From: Actinomycetes bacterium
Lineage (GTDB): Bacteria; Actinomycetota; Thermoleophilia; BMS3ABIN01
DNA: 41,650 bases
NCBI GenBank assembly: GCA_021790115.1
Contig: JAJYIM010000016.1
Coordinates: forward strand, 1 to 41,650
Reading direction: 5' to 3'
Shown in pieces: positions 4,796 through 40,446 of this stretch. Made by a program: the position numbers and the translations under genes. The notes under the pieces are model-generated. The model saw nothing but the letters and a program-made list of their open reading frames with translations, was not told where the DNA came from and did no database searches. Each line of letters opens with the position of its first letter. Within the stretch, counting starts at the first letter, position 1.

Positions 4796-4884
4796 AAAAT
4801 CATAACTGCTATTTTCTATCCATCAATTTAATTCTTGGTTTTTGGGTTTTATCCAGTATCCAGAGTCCAGCATCCAGCATCCGC
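4796..4884. repeat. Intergenic repeat copy A with five 7-nt units (ATCCAGN type)
   Basis: The rpsD-rpsK gap contains five consecutive degenerate heptamers of consensus ATCCAGC at 4851-4883, preceded by a T-rich stretch. The whole block of about 90 bases is closely similar to the block at 36909-36998 upstream of rplL, including the flank ACTATTTTCTAT (here GCTATTTTCTAT) and TTGGTTTTT. No ORF is plausible in it. Confidence 0.8.
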
Positions 4885-4886
4885 TT

Positions 4887-5282
4887 TTACACCCTTCTTC
4901 TCTTGCGCTGGCGGCAGCCGTTGTGCGGCACGGGCGTCACATCCTTGACGCTCATCACTTCCAGGCCGGCCGCCTGCAGCGACCGGATCGCCGTCTCCCG
5001 CCCGGAGCCGGGCCCTTTTACGAAAACATCAATTTTCTTTAAGCCGTGCTCTATGCCCTTCTTGGCGCAGGAGTCGGCGGTAACCTGAGCCGCAAAGGGA
5101 GTGCTCTTGCGTGAGCCTTTAAAGCCGACGGAGCCGGCGCTCTCCCAAGCAATCACATTTCCTTCCTTGTCGCAAAGGCTGACGATTGTATTGTTAAATG
5201 ACGTTTTGATATGCGCCTGGCCCACAGGAATGTTCTTTTTTACCTTGCGGCGTGAGCGCCCTTTTGATTTTGGTGCCGCCAT
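4887..5282 (-). CDS. rpsK: Small-subunit ribosomal protein S11
   Basis: S11 sits in the platform of the 30S subunit. The 131-aa protein has the family's [11 protein letters not shown], the central [11 protein letters not shown] and the C-terminal [10 protein letters not shown](Q)RKRRRV. ATG start with AGGTTA upstream. It lies between rpsM and rpsD as expected for the alpha operon, with repeat-bearing gaps on both sides. Confidence 0.97.
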
Positions 5283-5298
5283 AAATAAATAACCTCAG

Positions 5299-5350
5299 TT
5301 TCTTGTTTCGGGTTTCGGTTTTATCCAGCATCCGGAATCCAGCATCCGGT
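5299..5350. repeat. Heptamer tandem repeat, two families adjoining
   Basis: The rpsM-rpsK gap holds three units of GTTTCGG type followed directly by four units of ATCCAGC/ATCCGGA type. All are spaced by 7 nt. It is the clearest place where two heptamer families sit side by side. Confidence 0.75.
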
Positions 5351-5353
5351 TTA

Positions 5354-5725
5354 TCACTTCTTCCGCCTGATGCCGACAGTCCGCCGCGGCCCTTTCCGCC
5401 CGCGGGCATTGGTCTTCGTGCGCTGCCCCCTCACCGGCAGGCCGCGCCGGTGCCTCAGCCCCCGATAGCAGCCAATTTCCATCAGGCGCTTGACATTCTG
5501 GGAGCGTTCACGCCTGAGATCTCCCTCAACCATCAAATTCTTGTCCAGATATTCCCTCAGCCGGTTGACCTCTTCCTCGGTGAGGTCGCGGACGTAGGTA
5601 TCCTTATTTATGCCCAAGTCGCCCAAAACCCGGTTCGACTGGGAACGGCCCACTCCGTAAATGTAAGTAAGCCCGACCTCAACCCGTTTGTCACGGGGTA
5701 GATTTATACCGGCAATACGCGCCAC
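5354..5725 (-). CDS. rpsM: Small-subunit ribosomal protein S13
   Basis: S13 lies in the 30S head and contacts P-site tRNA and the 50S subunit. The protein starts [19 protein letters not shown] and contains [20 protein letters not shown], both family hallmarks; 123 aa. I chose the GTG start at 5725 because it gives the conserved N-terminus and has GGAGG 8 bases upstream. The longer open frame to 5812 runs into an intergenic repeat. Confidence 0.96.
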
Positions 5726-5781
5726 CGAACAACCTCCAATCAACCGGCAGAAGGGTGCTTGCTTCTGCCTTGTAAAATTAA

Positions 5782-5862
5782 GCCTTCCAAAGGCAGGCTG
5801 AAAACCTGCCATCTACCAGGCCTGCCTCCTGCCAAGGCAGGCACAGGCTGTCAGCCTGTGCG
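5782..5862. repeat. Interspersed repeat with nested hairpins (copy 1)
   Basis: The gap between rpmJ and rpsM contains CAGGCTGAAAACCTGCC, then CCTGCC...GGCAGG and CACAGGCTGTCAGCCTGTG, a chain of short inverted repeats. A matching stretch (AAAGGCAGGCTGGAAAACC, read on the other strand) occurs at 33610-33660, so this is a dispersed element and not gene-specific. Confidence 0.65.
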
Positions 5863-5881
5863 GGCATATCCCTGCCGCTGG

Positions 5882-5995
5882 CTAGCCCTGACGCTGCTTG
5901 TGCCTGGGGTTGGGACAAATAACCAGCAACTTCCCGCCCCGGCGCACCAGCTTGCACTTCTCACAAATCGGCTTGACAGATGATCTTACTTTCAT
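5882..5995 (-). CDS. rpmJ: Large-subunit ribosomal protein L36
   Basis: A 37-aa protein that I translated directly: it begins [19 protein letters not shown] and ends [10 protein letters not shown]-x2-C, a later Cys and a His form the zinc-ribbon of the C+ form. ATG start with AGGGA upstream. It sits between infA and rpsM as usual. It is short and easily missed. Confidence 0.95.
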
Positions 5996-6007
5996 GTCTA
6001 AATCCCT

Positions 6008-6034
6008 AGTTCCGCGTTCCAGGTCCGAGTTCAA
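6008..6034. repeat. Heptamer tandem repeat (AGTTCCG family)
   Basis: Upstream of rpmJ, four degenerate 7-nt units of type AGTTCCG / GGTCCGA. A related AAGTTC-type pair occurs just before the infA stop (about 6066-6090). Confidence 0.6.
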
Positions 6035-6089
6035 AAATCATTTGCATTATCTTGGCAAAGGCGCAAAGCATTTGAACTTGGAACTTTGA

Positions 6090-6311
6090 TCATTTGAATC
6101 TGTACGTTATCCTTCCTCTACTCAAATCGTATGGAGAAAGCTCAACCTTCACCCTGTCGCCCGGAAGAATGCGGATATAGTGCATCCTCATCTTCCCGGA
6201 GATATGCGCCAGCACTTCATGTTCGTTGTCAAGGCGCACCTTGAACATGGTATTGGGAAGGGCTTCAACAACTTCGCCCTCAAACTCTATCGCTTCCTCT
6301 TTTTCGGTCAT
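6090..6311 (-). CDS. infA: Translation initiation factor IF-1
   Basis: IF-1 is a small OB-fold protein that binds the 30S A site during initiation. The 73-aa form starts [19 protein letters not shown] and contains [18 protein letters not shown] and [13 protein letters not shown], all family features. The ATG at 6311 is preferred over 6335 because GGAGGTGGAGG lies immediately upstream and the resulting protein has the usual length. It lies 33 bases after map. Confidence 0.96.
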
Positions 6312-6344
6312 TAAGCCTCCACCTCCGGTGGCCAACCCGGCATT

Positions 6345-7136
6345 TTACCACAAAGGGAGGGCTGTGCCCAACCCCGGCGCCTCTTGTTCCTTCGCCAGCG
6401 TCAAGATGCGCGGCCTGTTTTCTATCAGCGCCACCGTGTGCTCAAAATGCGCCGACAGGCTGCCGTCCGCCGTGGAGATGGCCCACTTGTCTTCGCCTAC
6501 CACTACCCGGTGCGTCCCCGCATTGACCATTGGCTCGATGGCAAATACCATCCCTTCCTTCAGCAACGGACCCTCACCCGCCATGCCAAAATTTGGAATT
6601 TGTGGGTCTTCGTGCATATTGCGTCCGATGCCATGGCCAACCAAAGTCCTCACTACCGCAAATCCATTCGCCTCAACGTACTCCTCCACGGCGTGGGAGA
6701 CATCTCCCAGATGATTCCCCGGCACGCATTTGGCGATTGCCCGCATCAGCGATGCCTGCGTCACCTCCATCAGTCTCAACGCCAGCTGACCCGGCTCGCC
6801 CGCCGCCACCGTGACGGCGCCGTCCCCTACCCAGCCATCCAGCGTGACGCCAACATCAAGGCTGATAATATCACCGTCCTTCAGCGCGTACGGGCCGGGA
6901 ATGCCATGCACCACCATCCCGTTGGGAGAGGCGCAGATGGAAGCCGGAAAACCGCGGTAGCCCTTAAACGTCGGGGTGCCATTGTGCTTCCTGATAAACC
7001 TCTCAGCCTTTTCGTCCAGCTCAGCCGTTGTTACTCCCGGCCGGCAGTGCTGCTTCATCATCTCCAGGCAGCCGGCCACAACCTCGCCCGCCCGGGCCAT
7101 CTTCTCTATCTGGTCTCGTGACTTGCGAATTATCAA
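6345..7136 (-). CDS. map: Type I methionine aminopeptidase
   Basis: Removes the initiator Met from nascent proteins. All five metal ligands of the pita-bread fold are visible: Asp in SLDVG, Asp in VGDGAVT, His in GHGIGRNMHE, Glu in FAIEPM and Glu in AHFEHTV. The substrate-site His is in VVHGIPG. At 263 aa it has type Ia length with a short C-terminal tail. The start appears to be TTG at 7136, with only a weak upstream Shine-Dalgarno. It follows adk as in many spc operons. Confidence 0.96.
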   Translation of the reverse strand: MIIRKSRDQIEKMARAGEVVAGCLEMMKQHCRPGVTTAELDEKAERFIRKHNGTPTFKGYRGFPASICASPNGMVVHGIPGPYALKDGDIISLDVGVTLDGWVGDGAVTVAAGEPGQLALRLMEVTQASLMRAIAKCVPGNHLGDVSHAVEEYVEANGFAVVRTLVGHGIGRNMHEDPQIPNFGMAGEGPLLKEGMVFAIEPMVNAGTHRVVVGEDKWAISTADGSLSAHFEHTVALIENRPRILTLAKEQEAPGLGTALPLW

Positions 7137-7169
7137 CTTGACCAGGCCCCGGTTACACCAAAAACCAGA

Positions 7170-7849
7170 CTAACCGTCAAGCTGCTCGCTTGCCCGGAAC
7201 AGGATTTCCCTGATGCGCCCATAAATTTCATCCGGATTGCCAACACCGTCAATCTCGGCCAGCACTCCCGGCTTCCGGTAATAACTGATCAGCGGCTCGG
7301 TCTGCTGCCTGTAAACCTGCAGCCGGTTGCGCACTGTCGCCTCGCTGTCATCGCTGCGCTGGTAAATCTCACCGCCGCAGACGTCGCAAATATTCTCCAC
7401 TGCAGGCGGAGAAAAAACAGTGTGGTACGGCTTCTGGCATTCACGGCAAAGACGCCGGCCCGTCAGCCGGCCAAGCAGAGCAGCTCCGCTTCCGGGACGG
7501 CGATCGCCACAGCCAGCGTCACCTGGCTGCCGCTTTCCCCCAGCTCTTTATCCAGCTCCTCTGCCTGGGCAAGGCTGCGCGGAAAACCATCCAGCAGAAA
7601 ACCCGCCGCCGCATCCGGCTGTTTGAGCCGCTCCACAACAATGCCTGTGACCACCTCGTCCGGGACCAGCTCCCCAGCATCCATGAAAGCCTTTGCCTTG
7701 ACACCCATTTCCGTGCCCCTGGCGACAGCTTCACGCAACATGTCCCCCGTGGAAACGTGGACCAGCCCAAACTCCTGCCTGATCCGCTCCGCCTGAGTGC
7801 CCTTGCCGGCGCCCGGCGGGCCCAAAAGGATGACGTTCAGGCCGGGCAT
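7170..7849 (-). CDS. adk: Adenylate kinase, reading frame broken near 7470
   Basis: Adk converts ATP and AMP to two ADP. The first frame (7849 to about 7475) has the P-loop [17 protein letters not shown] and [15 protein letters not shown]. It then runs into a TGA at 7463. The rest of the enzyme continues in another frame from about 7469: [16 protein letters not shown], a second C-x2-C pair (CDVCGG) of the zinc-binding LID domain, and the normal C-terminus ending at 7170. Skipping five bases (TTGGC at 7470-7474) restores a protein of about 224 aa. Adk is essential, so this may be an assembly or sequencing error, a true pseudogene, or a recoding site. The start overlaps the secY stop by one base (TAATG). 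Confidence 0.85.
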
Positions 7850-9105
7850 TACTTCAGGAATCCTTCATAATGCCGCATCAGCAGTTGCGACTCCATCTGC
7901 TGCATGGTCTGAAGCGCCACGCCTACCACAATCAGAATGGAAGTGCCCCCGAAATAAAAAGTGATGCCCAGTGTGTTGATGAGCATGCTCGGCAACACGG
8001 CAATGGCAGCCAGAAAAATGGCTCCCGGCAGCGTCAGGCGCGTCAGCACCCGGTCCAGATACACGGCCGTGGGACGGCCCGGCCTGATGCCGGGAATGAA
8101 GCCGCCGTACTTTTTCAAGTCACTGGCCCGCTCCACCGGATCAAACTGGACGGCGGTGTAAAAATAGGTAAAGCCGATGATGAAAATCGATTCAAAAATT
8201 AGGAACGCCGGCCCGGAGGGACGCAGCCAGTTGGCGAACCATTGCGCCGCGCCGCTGCCGGTGAAAAACCGGGCAACCGTGGGCGGGAACATCAACACCG
8301 ACGAGGCAAAGATGACCGGAATGACGCCCGCCATATTGATCGAGAGCGGCAGGTAGGTGCTGCCGCCGGTAGTCATGCGGCGGCCAATCTGGCGTTTGGC
8401 GTACTGAATGTTGATACGCCGCTGCCCTTGTTGCACCAACACGATGCCCATGATCACCACGGCGCCAATCCCCAGCATCGCCACGATCGTGAAAACGCTA
8501 GTGGTGTCCGGATTTAAAAACCGGTACAGACCCGGAATCAGGCCGGAGACAATGCTTGCGAAGATGAGCAGCGAGATGCCATTGCCAATGCCATGCTGCG
8601 TCATCAACTCGCCGATCCACATCAGCAGCACAGTGCCGGCAGTCAGCGTAATAACAATCTCGTAAAACTTCAGCGGCGTAAGCTGGATGATTCCCTGCTG
8701 CCGGAAAAGAATAGTGAAGCCAACCGACTGCGCCAGCGCCAGCGCCACGGTCAGGAAACGTGTGTACTGAGTGATCTTTTGCTGGCCGGCCTCGCCCTCC
8801 CGGGCCAACTCCTTGAGCGATGGAAAAGCCATGGTCAGCAGCTGCAGGATGATGGAGGCGGTGATGTAGGGCATAATGCCAAGGGCAAATACAGCAAACT
8901 TTGTCAGCGCGCCGCCCGAAAACAGGTTCAGGAATCCGAGGATGTCTCCCTGGCCGCTGTTGATGAAATTCTGGATTGCGCTGGTATTCACGCCCGGGAC
9001 CGGAATGTGCGCCCCCAGCCGGTAAATCACGATCATGGCGGCCGTGAAAATCAGTTTCCGGCGCAGTTCGGGAATCTTCCATGCGTTTGCCAGAGAACCA
9101 AACAC
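7849..9105 (-). CDS. secY: Protein translocase subunit SecY
   Basis: The ten-TM core of the Sec translocon, 418 aa. Family marks are [19 protein letters not shown] in TM1, [24 protein letters not shown] in TM2, and [19 protein letters not shown] in the large cytoplasmic loop. The GTG start at 9105 directly abuts the rplO stop, with GGAGG inside the end of rplO, so the two are translationally coupled. Its partner SecE is encoded at 40036-40413. Confidence 0.97.
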
Positions 9106-9612
9106 CTAAATGACCTCCGCCTTGCCTCCGGCTGCCTCGATCTTCTGGCGGGCTGACTTGCTGAAACCGCCGGCCCGCACAACAAGCGCCACATTCAGCT
9201 CGCCCTGGCCGAGAATTTTAAGCGGTTTTTTCGTGTTCTTGATAATGCCGGCCTGGGCAAGCGCCTCGGGAGTGACGGTGGCGTCCGCTGTAAAACCAGA
9301 GAGGCTGCCGATATTGACGGACTGGACTTGAGTACGGAAGGGGCCCATTGGCATGCTCTTTTTCTTGTTGGCGCCGCGCAGCTTGCCCACCCGCATGTAG
9401 AGCGGCATCTGGCCGCCTTCATACCCAGGGCGGGGGCCGCCGCCGGCGCGGCTGTTAAAGCCTTTATGGCCGCGGCCTGACGTCTTGCCATGGCCGCTGC
9501 CGTGCCCTCGTCCCAGCCGCTTGCGGGCATGCCTTGCACCCGGCGCCGGGTGCAGGTTGTGCAAGCCGATATGTGTTTCTTCGTTTTTTTCTTTTTTTTC
9601 TTTTGTGTTCAT
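9106..9612 (-). CDS. rplO: Large-subunit ribosomal protein L15
   Basis: L15, 168 aa from the ATG at 9612. It starts with a Lys/Glu stretch (MNTKEKKEKNEETH) then HNLHPAPGARHARKRLGRG and GHGKTSGRGHKGFNSRAG, the Gly/Arg-rich family signature. The upstream in-frame Met at 9639 is rejected because it lies in a heptamer repeat and lacks a ribosome-binding site. GGGGC precedes 9612. It abuts secY without a gap. Confidence 0.95.
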   Translation of the reverse strand: MNTKEKKEKNEETHIGLHNLHPAPGARHARKRLGRGHGSGHGKTSGRGHKGFNSRAGGGPRPGYEGGQMPLYMRVGKLRGANKKKSMPMGPFRTQVQSVNIGSLSGFTADATVTPEALAQAGIIKNTKKPLKILGQGELNVALVVRAGGFSKSARQKIEAAGGKAEVI

Positions 9613-9623
9613 AAAATGCCCCG

Positions 9624-9664
9624 CGTTCCGAATTCTCAACTTTGAACTCGAAACTTTAAACTAC
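9624..9664. repeat. Heptamer tandem repeat (ACTTTGA/ACTCGAA family)
   Basis: Between rpmD and rplO, about five 7-nt units such as ACTTTGA, ACTCGAA and ACTTTAA, running up to the rpmD stop codon. Confidence 0.6.
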
Positions 9665-9846
9665 TTTTTTACTTCCTCCACCTCTACCATGAAGCGGACG
9701 TGCTGAACCATGCCACGAATCACCGGATTGTCATCGTGAATGACGCTGTGGTTGATCCGGCGCAGGCCCAGCGCCCGGATGGTGCGGCGGTGCTCGGCTT
9801 TTCGCCCGATCAGGCTTTTCCTTTGCGTGATCTTCAGCCTGGCCAT
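9661..9846 (-). CDS. rpmD: Large-subunit ribosomal protein L30
   Basis: L30, 61 aa: MARLKITQRKSLIGRKAEHRRTI, then ALGLRRINHSVIHDDNPVIRGMV, the conserved L30 core. The ATG at 9846 lies one base after the rpsE stop. The longer frame (to 9888) would overlap rpsE and is not needed. Confidence 0.95.
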   Translation of the reverse strand: MARLKITQRKSLIGRKAEHRRTIRALGLRRINHSVIHDDNPVIRGMVQHVRFMVEVEEVKK

Positions 9847-9847
9847 A

Positions 9848-10402
9848 TTATTCCGCCGCTTGTTCCGCGGGCTTTTCCGGAGCCACACCCAGAATCTCGG
9901 CCACAGTCTTGCCTCTGAGCCTGGCCAGCGCCTTTGGATCCTTTAGCGACATCAGCCCATCGATGCTGGCGCGCACCATATTGATGGGATTCGTTGTCCC
10001 CAGGCACTTGGCCAATACATCGTGGATGCCGGCCAGCTCCAGCACGGCGCGCACGCCGCCGCCGGCGATGATGCCGGTACCCGGCGAAGCCGGCTTAAGC
10101 AGCACGCGCCCGGCTCCGTAGCTGCCAATCACCTGGTGGGTAATGGTCGTTTTATACTTGGGCACTTGAAACATGTTTTTCTTGGCGTCCTCGACCGCTT
10201 TCTGGATCGCCAGCGGTACTTCCTTGGCTTTGCCATAGCCAACGCCAACGCGGCTGACAGCATCGCCAACGACAACCAGCGCCGTGAAAGAAAAACGCCG
10301 GCCGCCCTTTACAACCTTGGCGACCCGGTTGATGTGAACAACTTTTTCCTGAAGCTCCGGCGCCCTGGCGCCGAGCTCGATTTTTTCGTAAGCATCGGCC
10401 AT
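9848..10402 (-). CDS. rpsE: Small-subunit ribosomal protein S5
   Basis: S5 acts in the decoding fidelity region of the 30S subunit. The 184-aa protein has [19 protein letters not shown], the double-stranded RNA-binding segment, and [20 protein letters not shown]. The ATG at 10402 is preceded by GGAGGA inside the end of rplR. A longer open frame to 10489 is only overlap with rplR. Confidence 0.97.
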
Positions 10403-10403
10403 G

Positions 10404-10772
10404 CTAAAACTCGATTCCTCCTTTGCGGACAGCCTCCGCCAGGGCCTTGACCCGGCCGTGGTACAGATAAGCGCCACGGTCAAAAACAACCTGGCCGATA
10501 TTGTTTTCCTTGGCCCTTGCCGCCAGCAGTTCGCCCACCTTGCCGGCGGCCTCTGTTTTCTTCAGGCCTGTCTCCCTGATTTCCTTAAACGAAGCCGAAA
10601 CCAGCGTCTTCCCCTCCAGGTCATCGATTACCTGAGCATAAATGCCACGGTTGCTCCTGAAGACCGTCAGCCGGGGCCGCCCGGCAGCGCCTTTGATCCG
10701 GCTGCGCACCCGCTGCCGGCGCCGGTTGCGCGTCTCATGGCTGCTGATTAGCTGTTCCCTGGTTTTAGGCAT
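10404..10772 (-). CDS. rplR: Large-subunit ribosomal protein L18
   Basis: L18 binds 5S rRNA. At 122 aa it has the family's [32 protein letters not shown] and [20 protein letters not shown] at the C-terminus. ATG start. It lies one base before rpsE and two bases after rplF. Confidence 0.97.
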
Positions 10773-10774
10773 CT

Positions 10775-11311
10775 TTAAGCCCTCTTGCCAACCTTCCTGC
10801 GAATATGCTCTTCTTCATACTTGATTCCCTTGCCTTTGTATGGCTCGGGAGGGCGGACAGCGCGGATATCGGCAGCCACCTGCCCGACTGCCTGCTTGTC
10901 GATGCCCCTCACGATGATCTGCGTCGGCTTGGGCACTTCAAAAACAATGTCCTTGTTGGCGGGAGCAATCAGCACCGGGTGCGAGTATCCCACCGCCAGC
11001 TCGAGATCCCTGCCCTTAAGCTGAGCCCGGTAACCAACGCCATTTATCTCCAGCCGGCGGACAAACCCCTCGGTTACGCCATGCACCATATTGGCAATCA
11101 GGGTGCGGGTAAGCCCGTGCAGTGAGCGGTGCTCGCCGCGGTCCGACGGCCGCCTGACAACGACCTGGCCGTCCTCGACTGATATCTCCATCTCCGGGGA
11201 GAACCGGCCCTCGAGCGAACCCTTCGGCCCCTTGACGCTCACATCGCTGCTGTCAACCGTGACCTCGACGCCCTCCGGCACGGGTATAGGCGCTTTTCCA
11301 ATCCTTGACAC
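10775..11311 (-). CDS. rplF: Large-subunit ribosomal protein L6
   Basis: L6 lies near the factor-binding GTPase centre of the 50S subunit. The 178-aa protein starts [16 protein letters not shown] and has GYSHPV in the second half. The C-terminus carries [25 protein letters not shown], the family signature split over two stretches. The start is GTG at 11311 with no obvious Shine-Dalgarno. The 67-base gap before it carries a heptamer repeat. Confidence 0.97.
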
Positions 11312-11340
11312 TAAGCTATAACTCCACTTTTTTAGGTTTT

Positions 11341-11373
11341 ATCCAGTATCCAAAGTCCAACATCCAGCATTCG
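11341..11373. repeat. Heptamer tandem repeat (ATCCAGN family)
   Basis: In the gap between rplF and rpsH: ATCCAGT, ATCCAAA, GTCCAAC, ATCCAGC and ATTCGC, at 7-nt spacing. It is very close to the copies at 4851 and 36964, including the GTCCA third unit. Confidence 0.75.
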
Positions 11374-11378
11374 CTTTA

Positions 11379-12543: not shown

Positions 12544-12565
12544 TATCCAGCATCCATAATCCGGT
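12544..12565. repeat. Heptamer tandem repeat (ATCCAGC family), short
   Basis: Three units (ATCCAGC, ATCCATA, ATCCGGT) fill the rplE-rplX gap and run to within a few bases of both genes. Confidence 0.65.
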
Positions 12566-12889: not shown

Positions 12890-12922
12890 ATAGTCCTGTT
12901 ATTCAGCACTTTGTTCTTCCAA

Positions 12923-12950
12923 TATCCAAAGTCAAATATCTACTATCCGC
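12923..12950. repeat. Heptamer tandem repeat (ATCCAAA/GTCAAAT, degenerate)
   Basis: In the rplX-rplN gap: ATCCAAA, GTCAAAT, ATCTACT and ATCCGCC at 7-nt spacing, a diverged member of the ATCCAGC family ending next to the rplN stop. Confidence 0.6.
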
Positions 12951-12951: not shown

Positions 12952-13320
12952 CTACAGCACCTCCGGCGCCAACGATACTATTTTCATGAAATTCTTGTCC
13001 CTCAGCTCGCGGGCCACCGGGCCAAAAATGCGGGTGCCCCGCGGGTTCCGGGCTGCATCGATGAGGACGGCGGCGTTCTCATCAAAGGCAATGTAGGTGC
13101 CGTCCCTGCGCCCCAGCCCTTTTTTGGTTCTGACCACAACCGCCCGCACCACTTCGCCCTTCTTTACGGCGCCGCCGGGAGTGGCAACCTTCACCGTCCC
13201 CACGATTGTGTCGCCAATGCGGGCATACCGCCTCCTGGAACCGCCCATAATGCGTATGCAAAGGAGCTCGCGGGCGCCGGTGTTGTCCGCCACTTTTAAC
13301 CTTGTCTCGACTTGAATCAA
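12952..13320 (-). CDS. rplN: Large-subunit ribosomal protein L14
   Basis: L14, 122 aa. It starts [20 protein letters not shown] and contains [31 protein letters not shown] and [20 protein letters not shown], all conserved. The start codon is TTG at 13320, fixed by the family N-terminus, with only a weak upstream ribosome-binding site. Confidence 0.97.
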
Positions 13321-13340
13321 TTAACTTCGTTTCTCTCTTA

Positions 13341-13400
13341 TTTGTCATTCTGAGGGAGCGGAGCAGCCGAAGAATCCCAGGATCCTTCGCTTCGCTTACA
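13341..13400. repeat. Interspersed repeat of the TGTCATTCTGAG type (copy 1)
   Basis: The rpsQ-rplN gap reads TTGTCATTCTGAGGGAGCGG, then GAAGAATC and GGATCCTTCGCTTCGC. This resembles a dispersed intergenic sequence I recall from many environmental bacterial genomes. A degenerate relative lies at about 39350-39415. There is no coding signal. Confidence 0.6.
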
Positions 13401-13405
13401 ATTTT

Positions 13406-13888: not shown

Positions 13889-14303
13889 AAAGATCACCCT
13901 GGCGCATTACGAATTTGCACTTGACAGGCAGTTTGTGAGATGCCAGCCTGATGGCTTCCCGGGCCACGGGCGGCGCCACGCCGGAAAGCTCAAACATTAC
14001 CTTGCCCGGTTTAACCACCGCCACCCATTGCTCCGGTGAGCCCTTGCCGCCTCCCATCCTTGTCTCTGCCGGTTTCTCGGTAACAGGCTTATGCGGAAAG
14101 ATGTTAATCCAGACCTTGCCGCCGCGCTTGATATGACGCGTCATGGCAATCCGGGCCGCTTCTATCTGCCGGTTAGTGATCCAGGCCGGCTCAAGCGCCT
14201 TGAGCCCGTATTCGCCATGCTCAATGCGGTTGCCGCCTTTGGACAGGCCCGGCATCCGCCCCCGGTGTTGCTTTCTGTACTTTGTTTTTTTTGGCAGCAG
14301 CAT
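13875..14303 (-). CDS. rplP: Large-subunit ribosomal protein L16
   Basis: L16 contacts the A-site tRNA and is needed late in 50S assembly. The 142-aa protein starts [17 protein letters not shown] and contains [20 protein letters not shown] and [23 protein letters not shown] start. Its 3' end overlaps rpmC; upstream is a repeat-bearing gap to rpsC. Confidence 0.97.
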
Positions 14304-14310: not shown

Positions 14311-14341
14311 AGTTCCGAGTTCCAAATTCCGAGTTCCGAGT
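14311..14341. repeat. Heptamer tandem repeat (AGTTCCG family)
   Basis: Four units AGTTCCG, AGTTCCA, AATTCCG, AGTTCCG at exact 7-nt spacing lie between rpsC and rplP. This is the best-preserved array of this family. Confidence 0.75.
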
Positions 14342-15464: not shown

Positions 15465-15535
15465 AAGCCCGATTCCGATTTCCAAGTTCAGAAAGTTACC
15501 GGTTGATCAACGGTTCATCAGCATTGAACCTGGAA

Positions 15536-16672: not shown

Positions 16673-16684
16673 AAATAATAGTAG

Positions 16685-16758
16685 GTTTCGGGTTTCGGGT
16701 TAAAAACTTCGAATTATGAATATTTGTCCAGGATCCAGCGCCCAGGATCCAGAATCTG
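16685..16758. repeat. Heptamer tandem repeats of two families
   Basis: The rplW-rplB gap holds GTTTCGG, GTTTCGG, GTTAAAA, ACTTCGA, then after about 15 bases GTCCAGG, ATCCAGC, GCCCAGG, ATCCAGA and ATCTGC. As at 5299, the GTTTCGG family precedes the ATCCAGC family. Confidence 0.7.
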
Positions 16759-18011: not shown

Positions 18012-18046
18012 AGTTTCGAGTTTCGAGTTTCGGGTTTCGGGTTGAA
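18012..18046. repeat. Heptamer tandem repeat (AGTTTCG family), five units
   Basis: Just upstream of the rplD start: AGTTTCG three times, GGTTTCG, then GGTTGAA, at exact 7-nt spacing. This is the cleanest array of the family. In the rplD sense it reads CGAAACT/CGAAACC. Confidence 0.8.
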
Positions 18047-19264: not shown

Positions 19265-19285
19265 CGTTTCGGGTTTCGGGTTAAA
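19265..19285. repeat. Heptamer tandem repeat (GTTTCGG family), short
   Basis: CGTTTCG, GGTTTCG and GGTTAAA lie immediately upstream of rpsJ. A CCCGAAACT unit also fuses with the hairpin at 19342. Confidence 0.6.
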
Positions 19286-24064: not shown

Positions 24065-24493
24065 TTACGAAGAAATTGCTGTGAGGCAAGCTTCCACATG
24101 CCGCATATATTCAGGAATGTCTTTAGAGGCAGCCTTGATCGCTCCATAAACCTGGGAGGCGTCGATTTCATCATACTCATGCACAATCCGGTTTCTTAAC
24201 CCGGCGGATTTGGCAATCCTGCTTGCAAATTCGTGTTTGTATACACCAAGGTCTGCCAGATCAATAAACGATTGAAAATAGTCCGGCGGCGGCGCCTGCC
24301 CTGATTCAACCAGTAGATGAAAGTTTATGTCAATCATCCGGCCGATCATCCGCTCCAGATAGCGCTCTGCGGCTGCCTGATTAATGGCGCCGCCGAGATA
24401 CTCTTCCTTTGACAAACCGGCGAGAGATGCTATTTCCCGCAGGTCCTGGCCGATGAGGACCAGCTTGCGGTTGATCAGCTCGCGGTCGATCAT
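24065..24493 (-). CDS. hepT: HepT-like toxin (DUF86 family)
   Basis: A 142-aa all-helical HEPN/DUF86 protein. The motif R-x4-H-x-Y is visible as RNRIVHEY at about residues 100-107. In HepT family toxins it is the RNase active site, and its Tyr is AMPylated by the partner antitoxin. The start overlaps the end of the nucleotidyltransferase gene by 4 bases (ATGA). The gene pair is the standard MntA-HepT order. It lies directly upstream of the str promoter. Activity is inferred from the family. Confidence 0.88.
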   Translation of the reverse strand: MIDRELINRKLVLIGQDLREIASLAGLSKEEYLGGAINQAAAERYLERMIGRMIDINFHLLVESGQAPPPDYFQSFIDLADLGVYKHEFASRIAKSAGLRNRIVHEYDEIDASQVYGAIKAASKDIPEYMRHVEACLTAISS

Positions 24494-24921
24494 GCCGCCC
24501 CCCGCTCGTGCCTCCTGAGCAGGCGCCGAATGTATTCTTCCTCCATTTTCAGGAACCTTTTGTGATCAACGTACCGCTTGAAGGCGTACATGCGCAGCTC
24601 GGCCAGGGCGCGGCGCTTGCCATAAAGCAGTTCGCAGTTCTCCAGTATCTTTTTGAGAAAGAGCGGGTCCGCATGATTAACGAGCGCGAGGTCGACCTTG
24701 CGCTCGGGAAATATCCCCTGCAGCCCGGCCATAATATCAAAGGAATGCTCACCGACATCCTCGTTTTTCTCAAACTGGATGGCGATGTCCATGTCGCTGC
24801 CGGGGCGGGACTTGCCTGCAGCCATGGAGCCGAACATGATCACAAGACGAAGATTAAACTCTTCGGCCAACTGCGCTACCCGCGTGATTTTGTTTTCGTC
24901 GATTGTTTCGTCGATTGACAT
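24490..24921 (-). CDS. mntA: MntA-like nucleotidyltransferase antitoxin
   Basis: A 143-aa minimal nucleotidyltransferase. The motif G-S-x10-D-x-D is at residues 31-45 (GSMAAGKSRPGSDMD), with a third acidic residue in KVDLALV. MntA antitoxins AMPylate the Tyr of HepT and thereby silence it. ATG start with AGGGA upstream. It is followed by hepT with a 4-base overlap. The C-terminal 40 residues are strongly helical and charged. Confidence 0.88.
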   Translation of the reverse strand: MSIDETIDENKITRVAQLAEEFNLRLVIMFGSMAAGKSRPGSDMDIAIQFEKNEDVGEHSFDIMAGLQGIFPERKVDLALVNHADPLFLKKILENCELLYGKRRALAELRMYAFKRYVDHKRFLKMEEEYIRRLLRRHERGAA

Positions 24922-29798: not shown

Positions 29799-29829
29799 GA
29801 TGGTGGATGGTGGATGGTGGATGGTGGAT
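29799..29829. repeat. Four-fold ATGGTGG heptamer in the rpoB-rpoC gap
   Basis: Four exact or near-exact 7-nt units (TGGATGG phase) lie between rpoC and rpoB. It is the most perfect heptamer array in the window and differs in sequence from the other families while keeping the 7-nt period. Confidence 0.85.
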
Positions 29830-33458: not shown

Positions 33459-33540
33459 GGGGACCGGCAAAGTTTCCGCTCGACCCGTAATTTGCAGACA
33501 GGCCCCGCGGAGAACTTATCCCCCCAGGCGCGTTATTTAA

Positions 33541-33735
33541 ACCCGCCGTGGGGGCTGCACAGGCTGAGAAAGCCTGTACCTACCGTCCGTACGCCGCAGG
33601 TAGATGGCAGGTTTCGTAGATGGCGGTTTTCCAGCCTGCCTTTGGGAGGGTCTATCTACGCACACACCCTCGCCTGCACAAGCTGAAAGCCTGTGCCTAC
33701 CTAAAGCCTGTGCCTACCTAAAGCCAGTGCCTCCA
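33541..33735. repeat. Interspersed repeat with repeated AGCCTGTGCC units (copy 2)
   Basis: The 394-base gene-free gap upstream of rpoB (33364-33757) holds the rpoB promoter and this repeat. Units of the form GCACAGGCTGAGAAAGCCTG and AAAGCCTGTGCCTACCT recur three to four times. A stretch at 33610-33660 is the reverse complement of part of 5782-5862. There is no plausible ORF. Confidence 0.65.
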
Positions 33736-33757
33736 AAGCTCCCCCAGTTTTCCCTTT

Positions 33758-35050: not shown

Positions 35051-35161
35051 GATACCCTTCATTATTTTGATTCACTGGAAAAATTTGTCATGATTTTTTG
35101 ACAAACAAAAAGCAGCCACCAAGCGGCCGCCCCTTTTGCCAGCCAAATCTGACACATTTAT

Positions 35162-35225
35162 TAAATAACAATTGTGAAATTATTTATATCAGGGAGTTCC
35201 CTGATATTTGCCACATGCAAATATC
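35162..35225 (-). promoter_or_regulatory. Palindromic operator and promoter-like region of the NosD-like gene
   Basis: ATATCAGGGA and TCCCTGATAT form 10-bp arms around two bases (35186-35207). Overlapping it, GATATTTGC and GCAAATATC form 9-bp arms (35203-35211 and 35217-35225). A -10-like TATTTA lies on the minus strand at 35167-35162, about 29 bases from the palindrome centre. This spacing fits an activator bound near -42. Confidence 0.55.
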
Positions 35226-35242
35226 AAATGCTCTGCTTTCAT

Positions 35243-36862
35243 TTAAAATGTCAACGCCGGACGTCGCAGTGTCCCCGACCGTGCTTTGTAACATGATCCT
35301 GAAAATGGGGCAATACTATCTACTAACCTCAACAGCTGCGCCGCCAGCGGGTACGGTTTACCGTGATTAAAATCCTGGTAAGTCAACGCCTTGTTTGTCA
35401 ACGGACGCTGCCAGCCATACGTGCTCACGTCTTTTGCGCTGTAAATGTTAAACACTTCGGATAACAGGATTTGCGCCGCAGGGTATTGGCTTTCGATGTT
35501 GGGAATCATCGCTTTTCGGCCTTGCTGCGAGACAGACAACAGAATAATGTCGGGCCGTTGTCCTTCAACTTTTTGTGCGTAAACAAGTCCGGTATAAGTT
35601 TCCCAGTCGCCCATCACCACCGCCCCCGGCTTCGCCCTGCTAAAGACGAAATTAACATAATCGCGCATGTCGCGGTCGTTGCGATGATTGGCAAATGCCC
35701 ATGTATGAGGTGTACCGGCCACAAGCAAGCCGAAAAAGCCGAAATAAAAAATGCCCGCGACGATCAGCGCCAGTTGCCGCAATTCTGGGTCAGATTCTGC
35801 CAACTTGTCCAGGGCAATTTTAACCAGATATGCTGACAGACCAGCCCAGACGGCAAAGTAAAACAGCAACGGTAAATAATAATGGGCGTAAATGTCAGTC
35901 AGGACAAAAATGAGGAACATCTGCACGATCATCCCGGCCGCCAGAAAAACAAGCCAGCGCCAGACGAAGCGAAGGCGCCGCCACACGCCCGGCAAAAAAA
36001 GCGCCAGCGATGGCGCGAAAATAAGAATTAAAAACGAAGGGTTATAGCTGCTGTAAACAACTTCATCGAGGCGGCCTTGAACGTCAGCCAGGTTCGGCAA
36101 AAATGACTGTTGCAACCGCGTGTTGTGGGCGTGGGATGCAGACACAAAGCTGATCATTTTTGATAGGCTGTTTATTTTTTGATATTGGATGGCCGGGCCG
36201 GTGGCGCCGCGGATTGGCAAGTAAAGATAAAAACTCAAACCAGTCATAAATAACAGTGTCAAGATCAAAACGGGTTTCAGCCGGAGCAGTTGTTTCCAAC
36301 GCCCCAAAAAGAAGACGCCGGCGATGGGAACCGGCAGGAAGAACATCACCAGGGGATGATAAGCGAGGCCGAAACCCGCCAGCAGCGCGGCGCCCCACAA
36401 AAATCTGATATTGCCGCTTCTGCTCCAAAGCAGCAACAGGACTAACAGGACCGCCATAATTGTGAGCACGGCGTTATAGGGGGTCGCCACGGTTGCGTGG
36501 CTCCACCACATGCCCGCCAGCGCCAGTGTTGCAGCGGAAACAATAGCGGGCAGCACACGGTTGAGCAGCAGTACCATAAAAGCGTAAACGGCCACTACGC
36601 CGGCAGCGCCCATAACGACTGACAAAAAAGTGACTCTTGCGGCCGGCAGGCTAAAGGGGGCCAGCGTCAGCAGCCAGGACAAAATCGTATACGCTGGCGA
36701 GCCGGGGGCATGCGCGATCCCCAGGGTGGCGCCCGTCGCCTGCCATTCGGCCACATCATTAGCGCCAATGTCGGGAGCCATCGTGACCGCGTAAATGATC
36801 AAGCATGCCACGCCCAAAACGGCGCCTATCCAAAACCGGGGATTGTGAAGCAGCCGCCTCAA
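35243..36862 (-). CDS. DUF2723-family multi-spanning membrane protein, possible glycosyltransferase
   Basis: A 539-aa membrane protein with about 10-11 hydrophobic helices and a C-terminal soluble part. Near the N-terminus it has DIGANDVAEWQATGATLGIA followed by HAPGSPAY. This matches the DUF2723 signature (acidic pair, LGIAHPPGYP-like), a family related to GT-C O-mannosyltransferases and to TMEM260. The soluble part includes PGAVVMGDWETYTGLVYAQ. The likely role is transfer of a lipid-linked sugar on the outer face; donor and acceptor are unknown. The start appears to be TTG at 36862, weakly supported. It precedes the NosD-like gene, so the pair may make and glycosylate a surface protein. Confidence 0.75.
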   Translation of the reverse strand: MRRLLHNPRFWIGAVLGVACLIIYAVTMAPDIGANDVAEWQATGATLGIAHAPGSPAYTILSWLLTLAPFSLPAARVTFLSVVMGAAGVVAVYAFMVLLLNRVLPAIVSAATLALAGMWWSHATVATPYNAVLTIMAVLLVLLLLWSRSGNIRFLWGAALLAGFGLAYHPLVMFFLPVPIAGVFFLGRWKQLLRLKPVLILTLLFMTGLSFYLYLPIRGATGPAIQYQKINSLSKMISFVSASHAHNTRLQQSFLPNLADVQGRLDEVVYSSYNPSFLILIFAPSLALFLPGVWRRLRFVWRWLVFLAAGMIVQMFLIFVLTDIYAHYYLPLLFYFAVWAGLSAYLVKIALDKLAESDPELRQLALIVAGIFYFGFFGLLVAGTPHTWAFANHRNDRDMRDYVNFVFSRAKPGAVVMGDWETYTGLVYAQKVEGQRPDIILLSVSQQGRKAMIPNIESQYPAAQILLSEVFNIYSAKDVSTYGWQRPLTNKALTYQDFNHGKPYPLAAQLLRLVDSIAPFSGSCYKARSGTLRRPALTF

Positions 36863-36908
36863 TAAGGTCCCATCATTTCAAGCTCCCGGTTCCTAAGAAT
36901 CTATCTCA

Positions 36909-36998
36909 AAAATCATGGCGACTATTTTCTATTTGTCAAGTTAATTTGTTGGTTTTTAGGGTTTATCCAGTATCCAGAGTCCAGCATCCAGCATCCGG
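36909..36998. repeat. Intergenic repeat copy B with five 7-nt units
   Basis: The gap between rplL and the DUF2723 gene contains ATCCAGT, ATCCAGA, GTCCAGC, ATCCAGC and ATCCGGC at 36964-36998, preceded by ACTATTTTCTAT and TTGGTTTTT. It is nearly the same as 4796-4884. Confidence 0.8.
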
Positions 36999-37002
36999 CT
37001 TA

Positions 37003-37383
37003 TCACTTCACCTCGACCGTGGCGCCAACCTCTTCCAACTTTGCCTTGACATCTTCTGCTTCTTCCTTGCCTACTTTTTCCTTCACCGGTTTAGGGGCGC
37101 CATCGACTACTTCCTTGGCCTCCTTGAGCCCCAGGCCGGTGACGGCGCGCACAACCTTGATCACCTGGATCTTCTTGTCGCCCACGGCAGCAAGCACCAC
37201 ATCAAACTCGGTCTTCTCTTCTTCGGCAGCCGCAGCATCGCCGCCGCCGGCCGGGGCCGCGGCCACTGCCACCGGCGCGGCAGCGCTGACGCCGAACTCT
37301 TCCTCAAAGAGCTTGATCAACTCTGCAATCTCGGTGATGTTCCATGTTTTCAATTCCTCAAATGTCTTTTGTACGTCAGCCAT
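37003..37383 (-). CDS. rplL: Large-subunit ribosomal protein L7/L12
   Basis: The acidic stalk protein that recruits translation GTPases. The 126-aa protein has an N-terminal dimerisation helix ([18 protein letters not shown]), an Ala/Pro hinge and the C-terminal domain with [20 protein letters not shown] and [20 protein letters not shown]. The ATG has GGAGGAAG upstream, 54 bases after rplJ. Confidence 0.98.
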
Positions 37384-37437
37384 GCTTCCTCCGTTTTGAT
37401 TTTGACTTGACCGTAATTTCTAAGTGCGGCCGTGAAC

Positions 37438-37965
37438 TCAGGCCGCCGGCGCTTTTTGTTCCTGAACCTTGGAAAGCACTGTCACCAGGCCGCGCATGGC
37501 GCCCGAGAGCACCGTCACCATGCCTCTGGCCGGGCTCTGGAAGGCGCCCAGCAGTTGGGACATAAGAACTTCCTTGGAAGGCAGGGAAGCCAGATATTTG
37601 ATCCGCTCCGCATCGATCAACTGGCCTTCAAGAATACCGCCCTTTATCTCCAGCGGCTTGAGCTCCTTGGCAAATTTCACCAGCACTTTAGCCGGCGGCG
37701 CCGCATCGCCGCTACAAAAAGCAATGGCTGTCGGCCCGCTAAGGAACTCCTTTACCTCGGCCAGTTCGGCAGCATCGGCCGCCCGCTCAGTTAGCGTATT
37801 TTTGACAACTTCAAAACTGGCGCAACCCGCTTGGCGCAACTGTTGCCGAAGCTCCCGCGACTGGGCCACCGTCAATCCACGGTAATCGGCCACCAGCATG
37901 GCGCTGCTGGTTCTCATTTTGTCGGCCAGGTCATCCACCCTGGCCGCCTTCTCCTCTTTATTCAT
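37438..37965 (-). CDS. rplJ: Large-subunit ribosomal protein L10
   Basis: L10 anchors the L7/L12 stalk. The 175-aa protein has SSAMLVADYRGLTVAQSREL, FEVVKNTLTERAA and the C-terminal helix with SKVQEQKAPAA. ATG start with GGAGGTGAG upstream. It is preceded by an attenuator-type leader. In many bacteria L10 bound with L7/L12 represses this transcript. Confidence 0.97.
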   Translation of the reverse strand: MNKEEKAARVDDLADKMRTSSAMLVADYRGLTVAQSRELRQQLRQAGCASFEVVKNTLTERAADAAELAEVKEFLSGPTAIAFCSGDAAPPAKVLVKFAKELKPLEIKGGILEGQLIDAERIKYLASLPSKEVLMSQLLGAFQSPARGMVTVLSGAMRGLVTVLSKVQEQKAPAA

Positions 37966-38163
37966 GTCTCACCTCCATAAAAAAATCTACCTCCGCAAAG
38001 GTAGACATAACAACATATAAATGTTCCTACTGCCACCTCGGCGGGCGGGCCGGTTCTGCCGGCCCATTATGCCCATTTCGTGAGCACCGGCTGTCTTGGG
38101 TATTTGTAAGTTTCGGGTTTCGAGTTATTGTTTCAACATCAAGCTGGAAACCAGAAGCTGTTT
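37966..38163 (-). promoter_or_regulatory. L10 leader with intrinsic attenuator
   Basis: The rplA-rplJ gap holds a stable hairpin GGGCCGG/CCGGCCC (38047-38053 with 38059-38065) as expected for an L10 leader. A terminator follows: arms TCTACCT and AGGTAGA (37986-37992 and 37999-38005) with seven U on the minus strand (37985-37979). The terminator ends just before the rplJ ribosome-binding site, so rplJL transcription can be cut off independently of rplKA. A heptamer repeat (AGTTTCG, GGTTTCG, AGTTATT) lies at 38109-38129. Confidence 0.8.
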
Positions 38164-38880
38164 TTAGGCAACTTCCATAAACCCTCTCGTAACTGAAGAG
38201 TCAACCGGGATGCCCGGCCCCATGGTGGTTGCCATGACCACACTCTTGATGTATCTGCCCTTGGCCGCCGCCGGTTTGGCCCGGATTAACTCTTCCATCA
38301 AAGCACCGTAATTCTCCAATAGATCGGCTTCCGCAAATGAAGCCTTGCCAATGGCAAGGTGCACAATGCCGGTGCGGTCTGTGCGGAACTCAATCTTGCC
38401 GGCCTTCGCATCCCGCACAGCCTTGCCAACGTCAAAGGTAACTGTGCCGGCCTTGGGGTTTGGCATCAGGCCCCGCGGACCGAGCGCCCTTCCCAGGCGG
38501 CCTACCACACGCATCAAGTCCGGTGTAGCGATGGCCACATCAAAATCAAACCAGCCGCCTTCGATCTTCTTGGCCAAATCTTCGCCGCCGACAAAATCGG
38601 CGCCGGCGTCTTTGGCCTCTTTCTCCTTCTCCCCTTCCGCGAAGACGGCCACGCGTACTTCCTTGCCTGTGCCCTTAGGAAGCATCAGCGTCCCGCGGAT
38701 CATCTGATCTGCCTTGCGGGGGTCGACGCCCAAACGGAAGTGAACTTCAACAGTCTCATCAAAATTGGCAGATTTCAGTTCTTTTAACAGCCGCGCAGCC
38801 TCCAGCGGCGAGTAGAGCCTGGCGCGATCGACCTGGCTTTTGTTCTCGATAACCCTTTTGCTCGCCTTTGCTGTCATCAT
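38164..38880 (-). CDS. rplA: Large-subunit ribosomal protein L1
   Basis: L1 forms the mobile stalk by the E site. The 238-aa protein has [39 protein letters not shown] and a C-terminus of [14 protein letters not shown] at 38880 overlaps the rplK stop (ATGATGA context); a second ATG follows at once. L1 is a known translational repressor of rplK-rplA in other bacteria. Confidence 0.97.
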
Positions 38881-39299
38881 TGCACCTCAATGCCCATGCT
38901 GCGGGCGGTGCCGGCAATGATTTTCATTGCTGCGTCCAAGTCGTTCGCGTTCAGGTCTTTCATCTTTAGCTCTGCGATTTCCTTAATTTTGGCGCTCTGC
39001 ACCGTGGCAACCTTGTCCCGGTTGGGCTCTCCGGAGCCCTTTTCAATGCCGGCTGCTTTTTTCAGCAGCACTGCCGCGGGGGGCGTCTTGGTAATGAAAG
39101 TGAATGACCGGTCCTCAAAAACAGTGATCTCCACAGGGATGATCGTGTCGCCCTCCTGTTGCGTCTTGGCGTTAAAGGCTTTGCAAAAATCCATGATGTT
39201 AACGCCGTGCTGCCCCAGCGCGGGTCCCACCGGTGGCGCCGGGTTTGCCTGGCCCGCCGGGATTTGCAGCTTGATGATTGTCATTACTTTTTTAGCCAT
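38877..39299 (-). CDS. rplK: Large-subunit ribosomal protein L11
   Basis: L11 forms the GTPase-associated centre with the 23S 1070 region. The 140-aa protein has [39 protein letters not shown] and ending in [16 protein letters not shown] start; overlaps rplA by 4 bases. The [11 protein letters not shown] thiostrepton-contact region is unaltered. Confidence 0.98.
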
Positions 39300-39349
39300 C
39301 GTAAAATCTGCGCTTCCTTCTTTACCATTTTGACGATCGCTTCACCATT

Positions 39350-39415
39350 GCTCAGCAGAGGCTCCGCGACAATGAATCTCCAGATCCTATCCTTCGCTAT
39401 GCCCAGGATGACAAG
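39350..39415. repeat. Interspersed repeat of the TGTCATTCTGAG type (degenerate copy)
   Basis: The 199-base rplK-nusG gap has CAGATCCTATCCTTCGCTAT then GCCCAGGATGACAAG, a degenerate counterpart of the element at 13341-13400. There is no ORF or clear promoter in the gap. Confidence 0.45.
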
Positions 39416-39498
39416 TTGCATCTACGCGCAAGGAAGAAGGATACAGCAAAAACAGGCCGCGCCGCAAGCTGGCACAGGCCGGCCGGGCCCTTTCTCTT

Positions 39499-40023
39499 CT
39501 AGCCCTTTTTCACCTGTTCAAAGCTGAGCTCGACCGGGGTCTCCCGGCCGAAGATGTTTACCAGCACTTTCAGTTTGCTTTGATCTTCACTAATCTCGGC
39601 AATCTCCCCATTAAAATCGGACAGAGGCCCGGACATCACCCGGACCGTCTCGCCGACGCTAAACTGGGCAACCGCTTTTGGCTTTTCTACCGTCGAGGTG
39701 TGGAGGATGCGGTCCACTTCTTGTCCGCTTAGCGGCACCGGCTTATTGGCCGAGCCCACAAATCCCGTGACGCCTGGAGTGTTCTTGACGAGCGCCCACG
39801 AGTCATCAGTCATGTTCATGTTCACGAGAACGTAGCCAGGAAATACCCGCTTCTCAGTCTGCACCTTCTGTCCGTTCTTGGTTTCGATAACCTGCTCTGT
39901 CGGGACGACGATCTCCTTGACACTATGCTCCTGGCTCATTGACTTAATCCGCTGCAACAGGTTAAGCCGAACCTTGTTCTCATGGCCAGAATACGTGTTA
40001 ATAACATACCAGTTAAATGACAT
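39499..40023 (-). CDS. nusG: Transcription elongation/termination factor NusG
   Basis: NusG couples RNA polymerase to Rho or to the ribosome through S10. The 174-aa protein has the NGN domain (NWYVINTYSGHENKVRLNL and RVFPGYVLVNMNMTDDSW) and a C-terminal KOW domain (GETVRVMSGPLSDFNGEIAE). ATG start, 12 bases after secE. Confidence 0.98.
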   Translation of the reverse strand: MSFNWYVINTYSGHENKVRLNLLQRIKSMSQEHSVKEIVVPTEQVIETKNGQKVQTEKRVFPGYVLVNMNMTDDSWALVKNTPGVTGFVGSANKPVPLSGQEVDRILHTSTVEKPKAVAQFSVGETVRVMSGPLSDFNGEIAEISEDQSKLKVLVNIFGRETPVELSFEQVKKG

Positions 40024-40035
40024 TATTGCTTCTCT

Positions 40036-40413
40036 CTATCCGGTGAACAACCCAATTACCTTGGAGAAGACGGCATCCCATATAGCAATGAACGTCCCGG
40101 CAATGGTTACGGCTATCACGACCACAATCGTCGATTGGATCAACTCCTCGCGGGATGGCCAAGTGACCTTTGATAATTCCACTCTGACTTCGCGAAAGAA
40201 CTTGACATATTTGCGCTCTTTTATAGCCTTGGCCTTTGCCGGCTTTGATTTGGGCTGTTGCGCTTTGGTTGCTATCTTGCCCCGGAATCTGCCAGCCGTT
40301 TTCGCTTTGCTTTTTCCAGCCTGCTTTTCCTTTCCCTTTGAGGCGGCTTTCCCAACCCGCCCGGGGAGCGCAACTGTTTCCTTTTTCTTCTTTAGTTTGG
40401 CCGACTTAGCCAT
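40036..40413 (-). CDS. secE: Preprotein translocase subunit SecE
   Basis: SecE stabilises SecY. The C-terminal 60 residues hold the amphipathic segment FFREVRVELSKVTWPSREEL and a single TM helix. The first 65 residues are a basic Lys/Ala-rich extension (KLKKKKETVALPGRVGKAAS and onward), longer than the minimal SecE. 125 aa, ATG start. Its partner secY is in the spc block. Confidence 0.95.
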   Translation of the reverse strand: MAKSAKLKKKKETVALPGRVGKAASKGKEKQAGKSKAKTAGRFRGKIATKAQQPKSKPAKAKAIKERKYVKFFREVRVELSKVTWPSREELIQSTIVVVIAVTIAGTFIAIWDAVFSKVIGLFTG

Positions 40414-40417
40414 GAGT

Positions 40418-40446
40418 TAGTTCCAAATTCCAAATTCAAAGTTATC
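40418..40446. repeat. Heptamer tandem repeat (AGTTCCA/AATTCCA family)
   Basis: TAGTTCC, AAATTCC, AAATTCA and AAGTTAT at 7-nt spacing, just upstream of secE. Confidence 0.6.

What the first reader, a model, noticed from the sequence alone, without database searches (positions are those of the whole stretch)
4796..40446. Degenerate 7-nt tandem repeats fill most intergenic gaps of the ribosomal clusters
At least 15 gaps (near 4851, 5299, 6008, 9624, 11341, 12544, 12923, 14311, 16685, 18012, 19265, 23790, 29799, 36964, 38109, 40418) contain arrays of about 3-9 units with exact 7-nt period. There are three main sequence families (ATCCAGC, AGTTTCG, AGTTCCG) plus ATGGTGG in rpoB-rpoC. Sequences differ but the period is constant, and arrays of different families adjoin at 5299 and 16685. 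They are absent where genes are translationally coupled. They resemble the heptanucleotide STRR sequences of heterocystous cyanobacteria, which would be unusual here. Possible roles are transcript spacing, protein binding, or neutral expansion by slippage.
Basis: partly seen in the sequence, partly recalled or inferred. Interest (0 to 1): 0.72.

Follow-up and report, generated by a model that had tools for sequence, protein, structure and literature searches.

The report
Gene-border hairpins built from seven-letter repeats
The short seven-letter repeats between these bacterial genes are real; many look like single arms of small folded-back DNA elements that sit at the borders of genes in a few related uncultured actinobacteria, and what they do is not known.

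Summary
The arrays are real but overstated. 14 of 16 named sites have a period-7 stretch at p<0.05 (13 without a T-run near 9624), of 1.7-5.1 units, not 3-9; 8 of 32 window same-strand gaps hold an array. A 347-kb sample of the genome has 21 period-7 arrays against 0.1 expected.

The families reduce to two main words, A = TGGAY+2 nt and B = GTTYC+2 nt, with a near-constant core and a variable linker. Read in mRNA sense, these follow stop codons and their complements precede starts (147 arms right-way, 21 wrong-way; weaker with looser words). In a related genome type A arms form 18 hairpin elements with a loop of usually about 44 nt, three beside tRNAs. The window genome has mostly solo arms (31, against 3 complete).

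Arrays recur at the same gaps in sister species, usually with the same family, and are missing from a same-genus genome (0 of 35 gaps). CsrA was not found, no RAYT link or target-site duplication was seen, and opposing arms do not co-vary. Function is unproven.

The parts
4850..4882 (-). type A arm (TGGAY heptads in mRNA sense), 4 nt after the rpsK stop codon
   Evidence: score 16, p 0.001; sense reading; type A left arm also in this gap of G001 and G003
5323..5347 (-). type A arm after the rpsM stop codon
   Evidence: TRF period 7/14
5298..5322 (+). type B arm (GTTYC on + strand, GRAAC in mRNA sense) before rpsK; adjoins the A arm
   Evidence: score 10.5, p 0.001
9613..9660 (.). rpmD-rplO gap with a short type B left arm
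   Evidence: B left arm in G000, G001 and G003; the G004 gap is 21 nt and lacks it
11340..11370 (-). type A arm after the rpsH stop codon
   Evidence: score 9, p 0.003; A also in G001
12545..12562 (-). type A arm, rplX-rplE gap
   Evidence: score 6, p 0.028; A also in G001
12918..12947 (-). very degenerate type A-like stretch after the rplN stop codon
   Evidence: score 5.5, p 0.036
14311..14341 (+). type B right arm (GRAAC in mRNA sense) just before the ATG at 14303 (rplP)
   Evidence: score 14, p 0.001; B right arm also in G001 and G003
15465..15535 (.). rpsS-rplV gap, type B left arm directly at the TAG stop; GAAC/GGAA words before rplV too degenerate for the arm rule
   Evidence: one search scores it left arm only
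16684..16701 (+). type B right arm before rplB
   Evidence: score 11, p 0.001
16727..16756 (-). degenerate type A arm after the rplW stop codon
   Evidence: TRF period 7, 69% matches
18012..18043 (+). type B right arm 7 nt before the called rplD start
   Evidence: score 22.5, p 0.001
19266..19282 (+). type B words near the start of rpsJ (start uncertain, the called frame begins further upstream)
   Evidence: score 10, p 0.002
29799..29829 (+). type A arm in reverse orientation (AUCCACC in mRNA sense) before the rpoC ribosome-binding site
   Evidence: score 24, p 0.001; one to three ATCCACC-like units also in G001, G002 and G003, none in G004 or L069; the arm rule scores only G000 and G002
36964..36999 (-). 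type A arm after the rplL stop codon; its first 33 nt equal 4850-4882
   Evidence: score 16.5, p 0.001
38110..38126 (+). short type B stretch, rplA-rplJ gap
   Evidence: score 7.5, p 0.007
40421..40443 (+). type B-like stretch 7 nt before the ATG of the ORF 40036-40413
   Evidence: score 11, p 0.001; ORF

Best explanation
The arrays are arms of small gene-border elements with inverted halves. An arm is a few heptads (3-8 in the complete elements seen) of a near-constant 5-nt core plus a free 2-nt linker (type A TGGAY-NN, type B GTTYC-NN). The outer end of an arm lies at a gene border (stop codon, start codon or tRNA end) and complementary arms face each other across the gap. A complete type A element is arm, a loop of usually about 44 nt, inverted arm, and can fold into a strong hairpin. 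Shown: the words, the orientation, complete elements in G008, many solo arms, recurrence at orthologous gaps, a 14-nt (two-unit) length difference. Inferred: that solo arms in the window genome are remnants or one-sided versions of such hairpins; that elements spread as non-autonomous palindromic DNA (REPIN- or MITE-like in behaviour, by an unknown enzyme), then change length by slippage while the core is kept because it is the paired or bound part. Any effect on the mRNA (an intercistronic stem, a processing or binding site) is a guess.
For: Gene-oriented arms 147 right-way vs 21 wrong-way over 673 gaps, both arms in 26 gaps vs 0 wrong-way; left and right arm presence associated in same-strand gaps (odds ratio 7.0, p 2e-9). 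Left arms start 0-8 nt after the stop in 17 of 24 sense-A and 14 of 20 B arrays. Deviations concentrate in two columns (0.781 vs 0.649, 49 of 62 arrays, p 1.4e-7). G008: 18 complete type A elements in 10 of 11 regions read, 13 of 18 with loops of 42-45 nt, dG -33 to -86 kcal/mol, three of them next to tRNAs. A model of inner arms plus loop has 73 matches in G008 (about 37 places by my count, since a palindrome matches on both strands), 7-15 weaker matches in each of five genus genomes, none in G004, with 150 first-look candidates scored per genome. One complete element has 58 matches in the window genome, both strands counted, all listed ones arm-sized. Filled against nearly empty site: tRNA-Tyr/tRNA-Thr gap 119 nt in G008, 11 nt in G005. 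Orthologous gaps share arrays (7 of 14 gaps with any in G000/G001, 9 of 16 in G000/G003, 6 of 16 in G001/G003) with the same family 4/5, 5/6, 3/3 on the left and 3/3, 4/4, 4/4 on the right. Arrays in 4 of 94 divergent gaps against 85 of 516 same-strand gaps. G003 and G005 differ by 14 nt in one array and 8 nt in another.
Against: With looser words and overlapping halves the orientation is less clean: right-way vs wrong-way 118 vs 47 in 516 same-strand gaps, 13 vs 3 in 63 convergent, 16 vs 8 in 94 divergent. In the window genome solo A arms prevail (3 complete, 31 solo) and the 22 gaps with only a left A arm show no fold (mean z +0.14). Opposing arms are not matched in detail: same-gap arms pair no better than swapped arms within a genome (z -0.0 to 1.3; pooled over genomes z 2.9, which also reflects family use per genome; array-free gaps of G000 give z 4.2); B linkers do not match (0.591 vs 0.590, 11 gaps); in G008 own arms pair no better than swapped ones (15.81 vs 17.25); the covariation term is 0.03. 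No target-site duplication seen (p 0.17). Unit order is not shared between loci above shuffle in G000 (2 vs 2.0). In 51 kb of G003/G005 alignment no clean gain of an element was seen. No transposase was linked to them. The core words were chosen after looking at part of the same data.
Confidence: 0.45

Rival explanations
1. Protein- or RNA-binding sites of a post-transcriptional network: a factor reads the 5-nt cores next to stop and start codons, as was proposed for the TAACTGA repeats of Beggiatoaceae; the inverted layout only reflects where it binds.
For: Near-constant core and free linker; placement 0-8 nt after stops, and 20 of 39 GRAAC arrays within 20 nt of a start; type A sits at the stop side far more than the start side (31 vs 5 in same-strand gaps), which a symmetric element would not predict; Shine-Dalgarno words are rarer where an array lies within 25 nt of the start (10/30 vs 296/539, p 0.024); same family mostly kept at orthologous gaps.
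Against: Elements also lie between tRNA genes. G004 runs the same operons without arrays. CsrA not found in 6 of 6 genomes, control positive in 3 of 14. A -10-like box upstream of B arrays is not enriched (4/34 vs 76/1362, p 0.13).
Confidence: 0.28
2. Neutral heptanucleotide microsatellites: period 7 is favoured by the replication machinery, arrays grow and shrink by slippage and survive only where DNA is non-coding.
For: Period 7 (with its harmonic) is the period in excess; 28 of 30 arrays of window plus sample lie mostly outside genes; length differences of 14 and 8 nt; heptamers are reported over-represented in bacteria and tied to polymerase slippage (PMC4692102, passages seen); scattered GTTYC arrays in five other actinobacterial families, several long and uniform; a minor third word, CGTTTA/TAAACG, behaves alike (6 of 112 arrays).
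Against: Deviations not spread evenly over the unit; orientation to genes; inner end GGATAAA in 15 and a close form in 9 of 28 type A arrays; complete elements with a loop of usually about 44 nt.
Confidence: 0.18
3. REPINs or other RAYT-driven palindromes.
For: Inverted doublet of conserved words, spacer of fairly fixed length, hairpin, solo remnants, local clusters: the layout of REPINs (PMC3116915, passages seen).
Against: Y1 transposase (PF01797) not found in G000, G002, G003 and G005, which have arrays; one in G001; five in G004, which has none. Present once each in G008 and G007, but 0 of 8 Y1 loci looked at carry A or B word pairs.
Confidence: 0.05

Closest known systems
TAACTGA direct repeats of Beggiatoaceae, some Cyanobacteria and Bacteroidetes (MacGregor 2015, PMC4679880; outline and abstract, section 5 part 1 of 5, and sections 10, 13, 16 and 24 seen)
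   Same: 7-nt intergenic arrays of 2-6 units, mostly forward just upstream of start codons, a few near stops, present inside ribosomal protein operons, 7-nt indels between close strains, few Shine-Dalgarno sites nearby, patchy among relatives. Right-hand B arms (GAACT or AAACT heptads) share the AACT string and the position.
   Different: One word there, two main words with free linkers here; that paper reports one inverted repeat and predicts no particular RNA structure, here inverted arms are frequent and complete hairpins occur.
GGGAATC / GGGGA(C/T)T heptamers of Xanthomonas and Nostoc (Rehm 2015, PMC4692102; passages seen)
   Same: Heptameric, intergenic, some inverted repeats, mostly the same gene pairs in two species with variable length.
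   Different: Those are G-rich and quadruplex-forming; the words here lack G runs of three.
REPINs (PMC3116915; passages seen)
   Same: Inverted doublet with spacer, hairpin, solo remnants, clusters.
   Different: No RAYT link seen; arms are variable-number heptads instead of a fixed REP word.
STRR heptanucleotides and small dispersed repeats of filamentous cyanobacteria (recalled; no paper on them read)
   Same: Period 7, intergenic.
   Different: Sequence and arrangement not compared here.

Membership tests
Intergenic heptameric repeats of bacteria (broad kind) | 7-nt period in excess of other periods, outside genes | tested here: met
TAACTGA repeats | unit TAACTGA | tested here: not met
   unit profiles are TGGAYNN and GTTYCNN
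TAACTGA repeats | forward arrays upstream of start codons | tested here: met
   GRAAC arrays nearer the start in 30 of 39
REPIN | inverted doublet forming a hairpin, with solo remnants | tested here: met
REPIN | RAYT (Y1 transposase) in the genome, flanked by the element | tested here: not met
MITE | target-site duplication | tested here: inconclusive
   longest shared flank word 3.29 vs 3.00 swapped, p 0.17, 17 of 18 elements; very short duplications would be missed
MITE | terminal inverted repeats shared with an autonomous transposon | not tested
   no transposon with heptad ends was looked for beyond Y1
Neutral microsatellite | mutations evenly spread over the unit | tested here: not met
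Neutral microsatellite | length changes in whole units | tested here: inconclusive
   14 nt in one array, 8 nt in another; other arrays in the 51-kb alignment mostly unchanged in length
CsrA-bound GGA sites | CsrA in the genome | tested here: not met
   0 of 6 genus genomes; 3 of 14 control genomes ring
Cyanobacterial STRR | matching STRR words | not tested
   only the period was compared

The most novel reading that the evidence does not exclude
A class of mobile or self-copying element not described before: a hairpin with a short loop and arms that are themselves slippable heptad arrays. Two unrelated core words (TGGAY and GTTYC) obey one layout with the outer ends at gene borders, including tRNA ends and ribosomal operons, and single arms persist over species divergence.
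Probability: 0.32. Interest if true: 0.68.

Novelty: new variant of a known kind. Interest (0 to 1): 0.5.

Why it matters
Heptamer over-representation in bacteria was noted in 2007 (as cited in PMC4692102) and its cause is not settled. Here the repeats come with an anatomy that can be tested: a core and a linker, an orientation to genes, and complete hairpin elements. If the arms are element remnants, some heptamer arrays elsewhere may be too, and the question of why seven becomes one about a stem or an enzyme rather than about slippage alone. It would also show small elements tolerated between essential ribosomal genes.

Tried and rejected
Changes made on checking: TRF sites 9 of 16 (I had first counted 10); complete arms 3-8 heptads (first 3-7); orientation counts with looser words, the capped candidate lists and the pattern controls added; target-site test marked inconclusive. 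For the first three of these I lowered the main confidence from 0.48 to 0.45 and raised two rivals by 0.01 each.

Promoter idea: in several G000 gaps a TTGACA/CATAAT-like pair lies between an A arm and a B arm, suggesting that B arrays start transcripts; only 4 of 34 B arrays have such a box within 20 nt and the excess is not significant. Dropped as general.

Covarying arms: the G003/G005 tuf-rpsJ gap looks as if both arms switched between GTTC and GTTTC together. Tests of same-gap against swapped arms, linker matching and alignment covariation gave nothing. Within-genome family concordance of the two arms is 16 of 26 vs 12.7 expected, p 0.065. So I do not claim compensatory change.

Copies of one progenitor: unit order is not shared above shuffle in G000, and after masking arrays the gaps of G000 do not cluster by array type.

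Stop codons supplied by the element: usage not significantly shifted (TAG 14/34 vs 323/1203, p 0.078).

Fold strength of two-armed same-family gaps (mean z -3.95, 12 of 16 below -2) is partly built in, since gaps were chosen for inverted words; only 60 of 347 array-free gaps were folded as control (mean -0.39).

Limits of counts: one search left out G004, L069 and G008 and gaps under 45 or over 400 nt; gaps with N were dropped throughout; one search left out arrays under 21 nt, and 16 arrays fitted neither word; one search aligned 16 of 18 complete elements and one search used 17; the G008 regions were picked from matches to one complete element, so 18 is not a random sample. Gene calls are from my own ORF script; starts are uncertain. 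Names of ribosomal genes are recalled from order and sequence, not from a call; only seven non-ribosomal window proteins were scanned. Fisher tests treat gaps as independent; with coupled gaps removed the sharing of arrays is p 0.041 (G000/G001) and 0.047 (G000/G003).

Paper searches; beyond the three papers cited none that I saw listed was closer; open-licence PMC library only, and most hits seen as listings.


Full report
Setting. The window is contig C12 of a 1.81-Mb, 63-contig genome of 97.6% completeness. Its rpoB is 90% identical to that of a Thermoleophilia MAG (L068) and 86% to an Actinomycetes MAG (L069), with the next ones at 73-75% (Actinobacteria, Solirubrobacterales), so I take it for an uncultured Thermoleophilia-like actinobacterium. 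G003's contig C34 has the same length as L068's contig (42,883), so G003 is probably that MAG.

Noticed in passing
window 36892-36914 (fragment); L061:3526-3931: Another dispersed repeat of about 185 nt (AATCTATCTCAAAAAGCATATTCTGCTGCGGCCGGC...) links 50 of 240 sampled gaps of the window genome by self-BLAST; 10 of the 50 also hold heptad arrays.
   Followed up: no
window 24065-24921: HepT-like ribonuclease gene next to a nucleotidyltransferase gene, a likely toxin-antitoxin pair of the HepT/MntA kind, between rpsL and rpoC.
   Followed up: no
window 7170-7849: The adk gene seems split into two frames here (7463-7849 and 7170-7400), while in G001 the frame runs on to a stop 69 nt before map; a frameshift or assembly error.
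   Followed up: no
window 13320-13405: The rpsQ-rplN gap carries a TCATTCTGAGG...CGAAGAATCC inverted element; similar ones sit in the rpoA-rplQ and rpsS-rplV gaps of G001.
   Followed up: no
L069 rplA-rplJ gap; L054:8075-8183: Near-perfect palindromes of the form GGGACGT..CGTTTCC just after stop codons, in L069 and in the window genome's own sample.
   Followed up: no
window 33600-33732: Tandem repeats of 16 and 17 nt (GTAGATGGCAGGTTTC, AAAGCCTGTGCCTACCT) upstream of rpoB.
   Followed up: no
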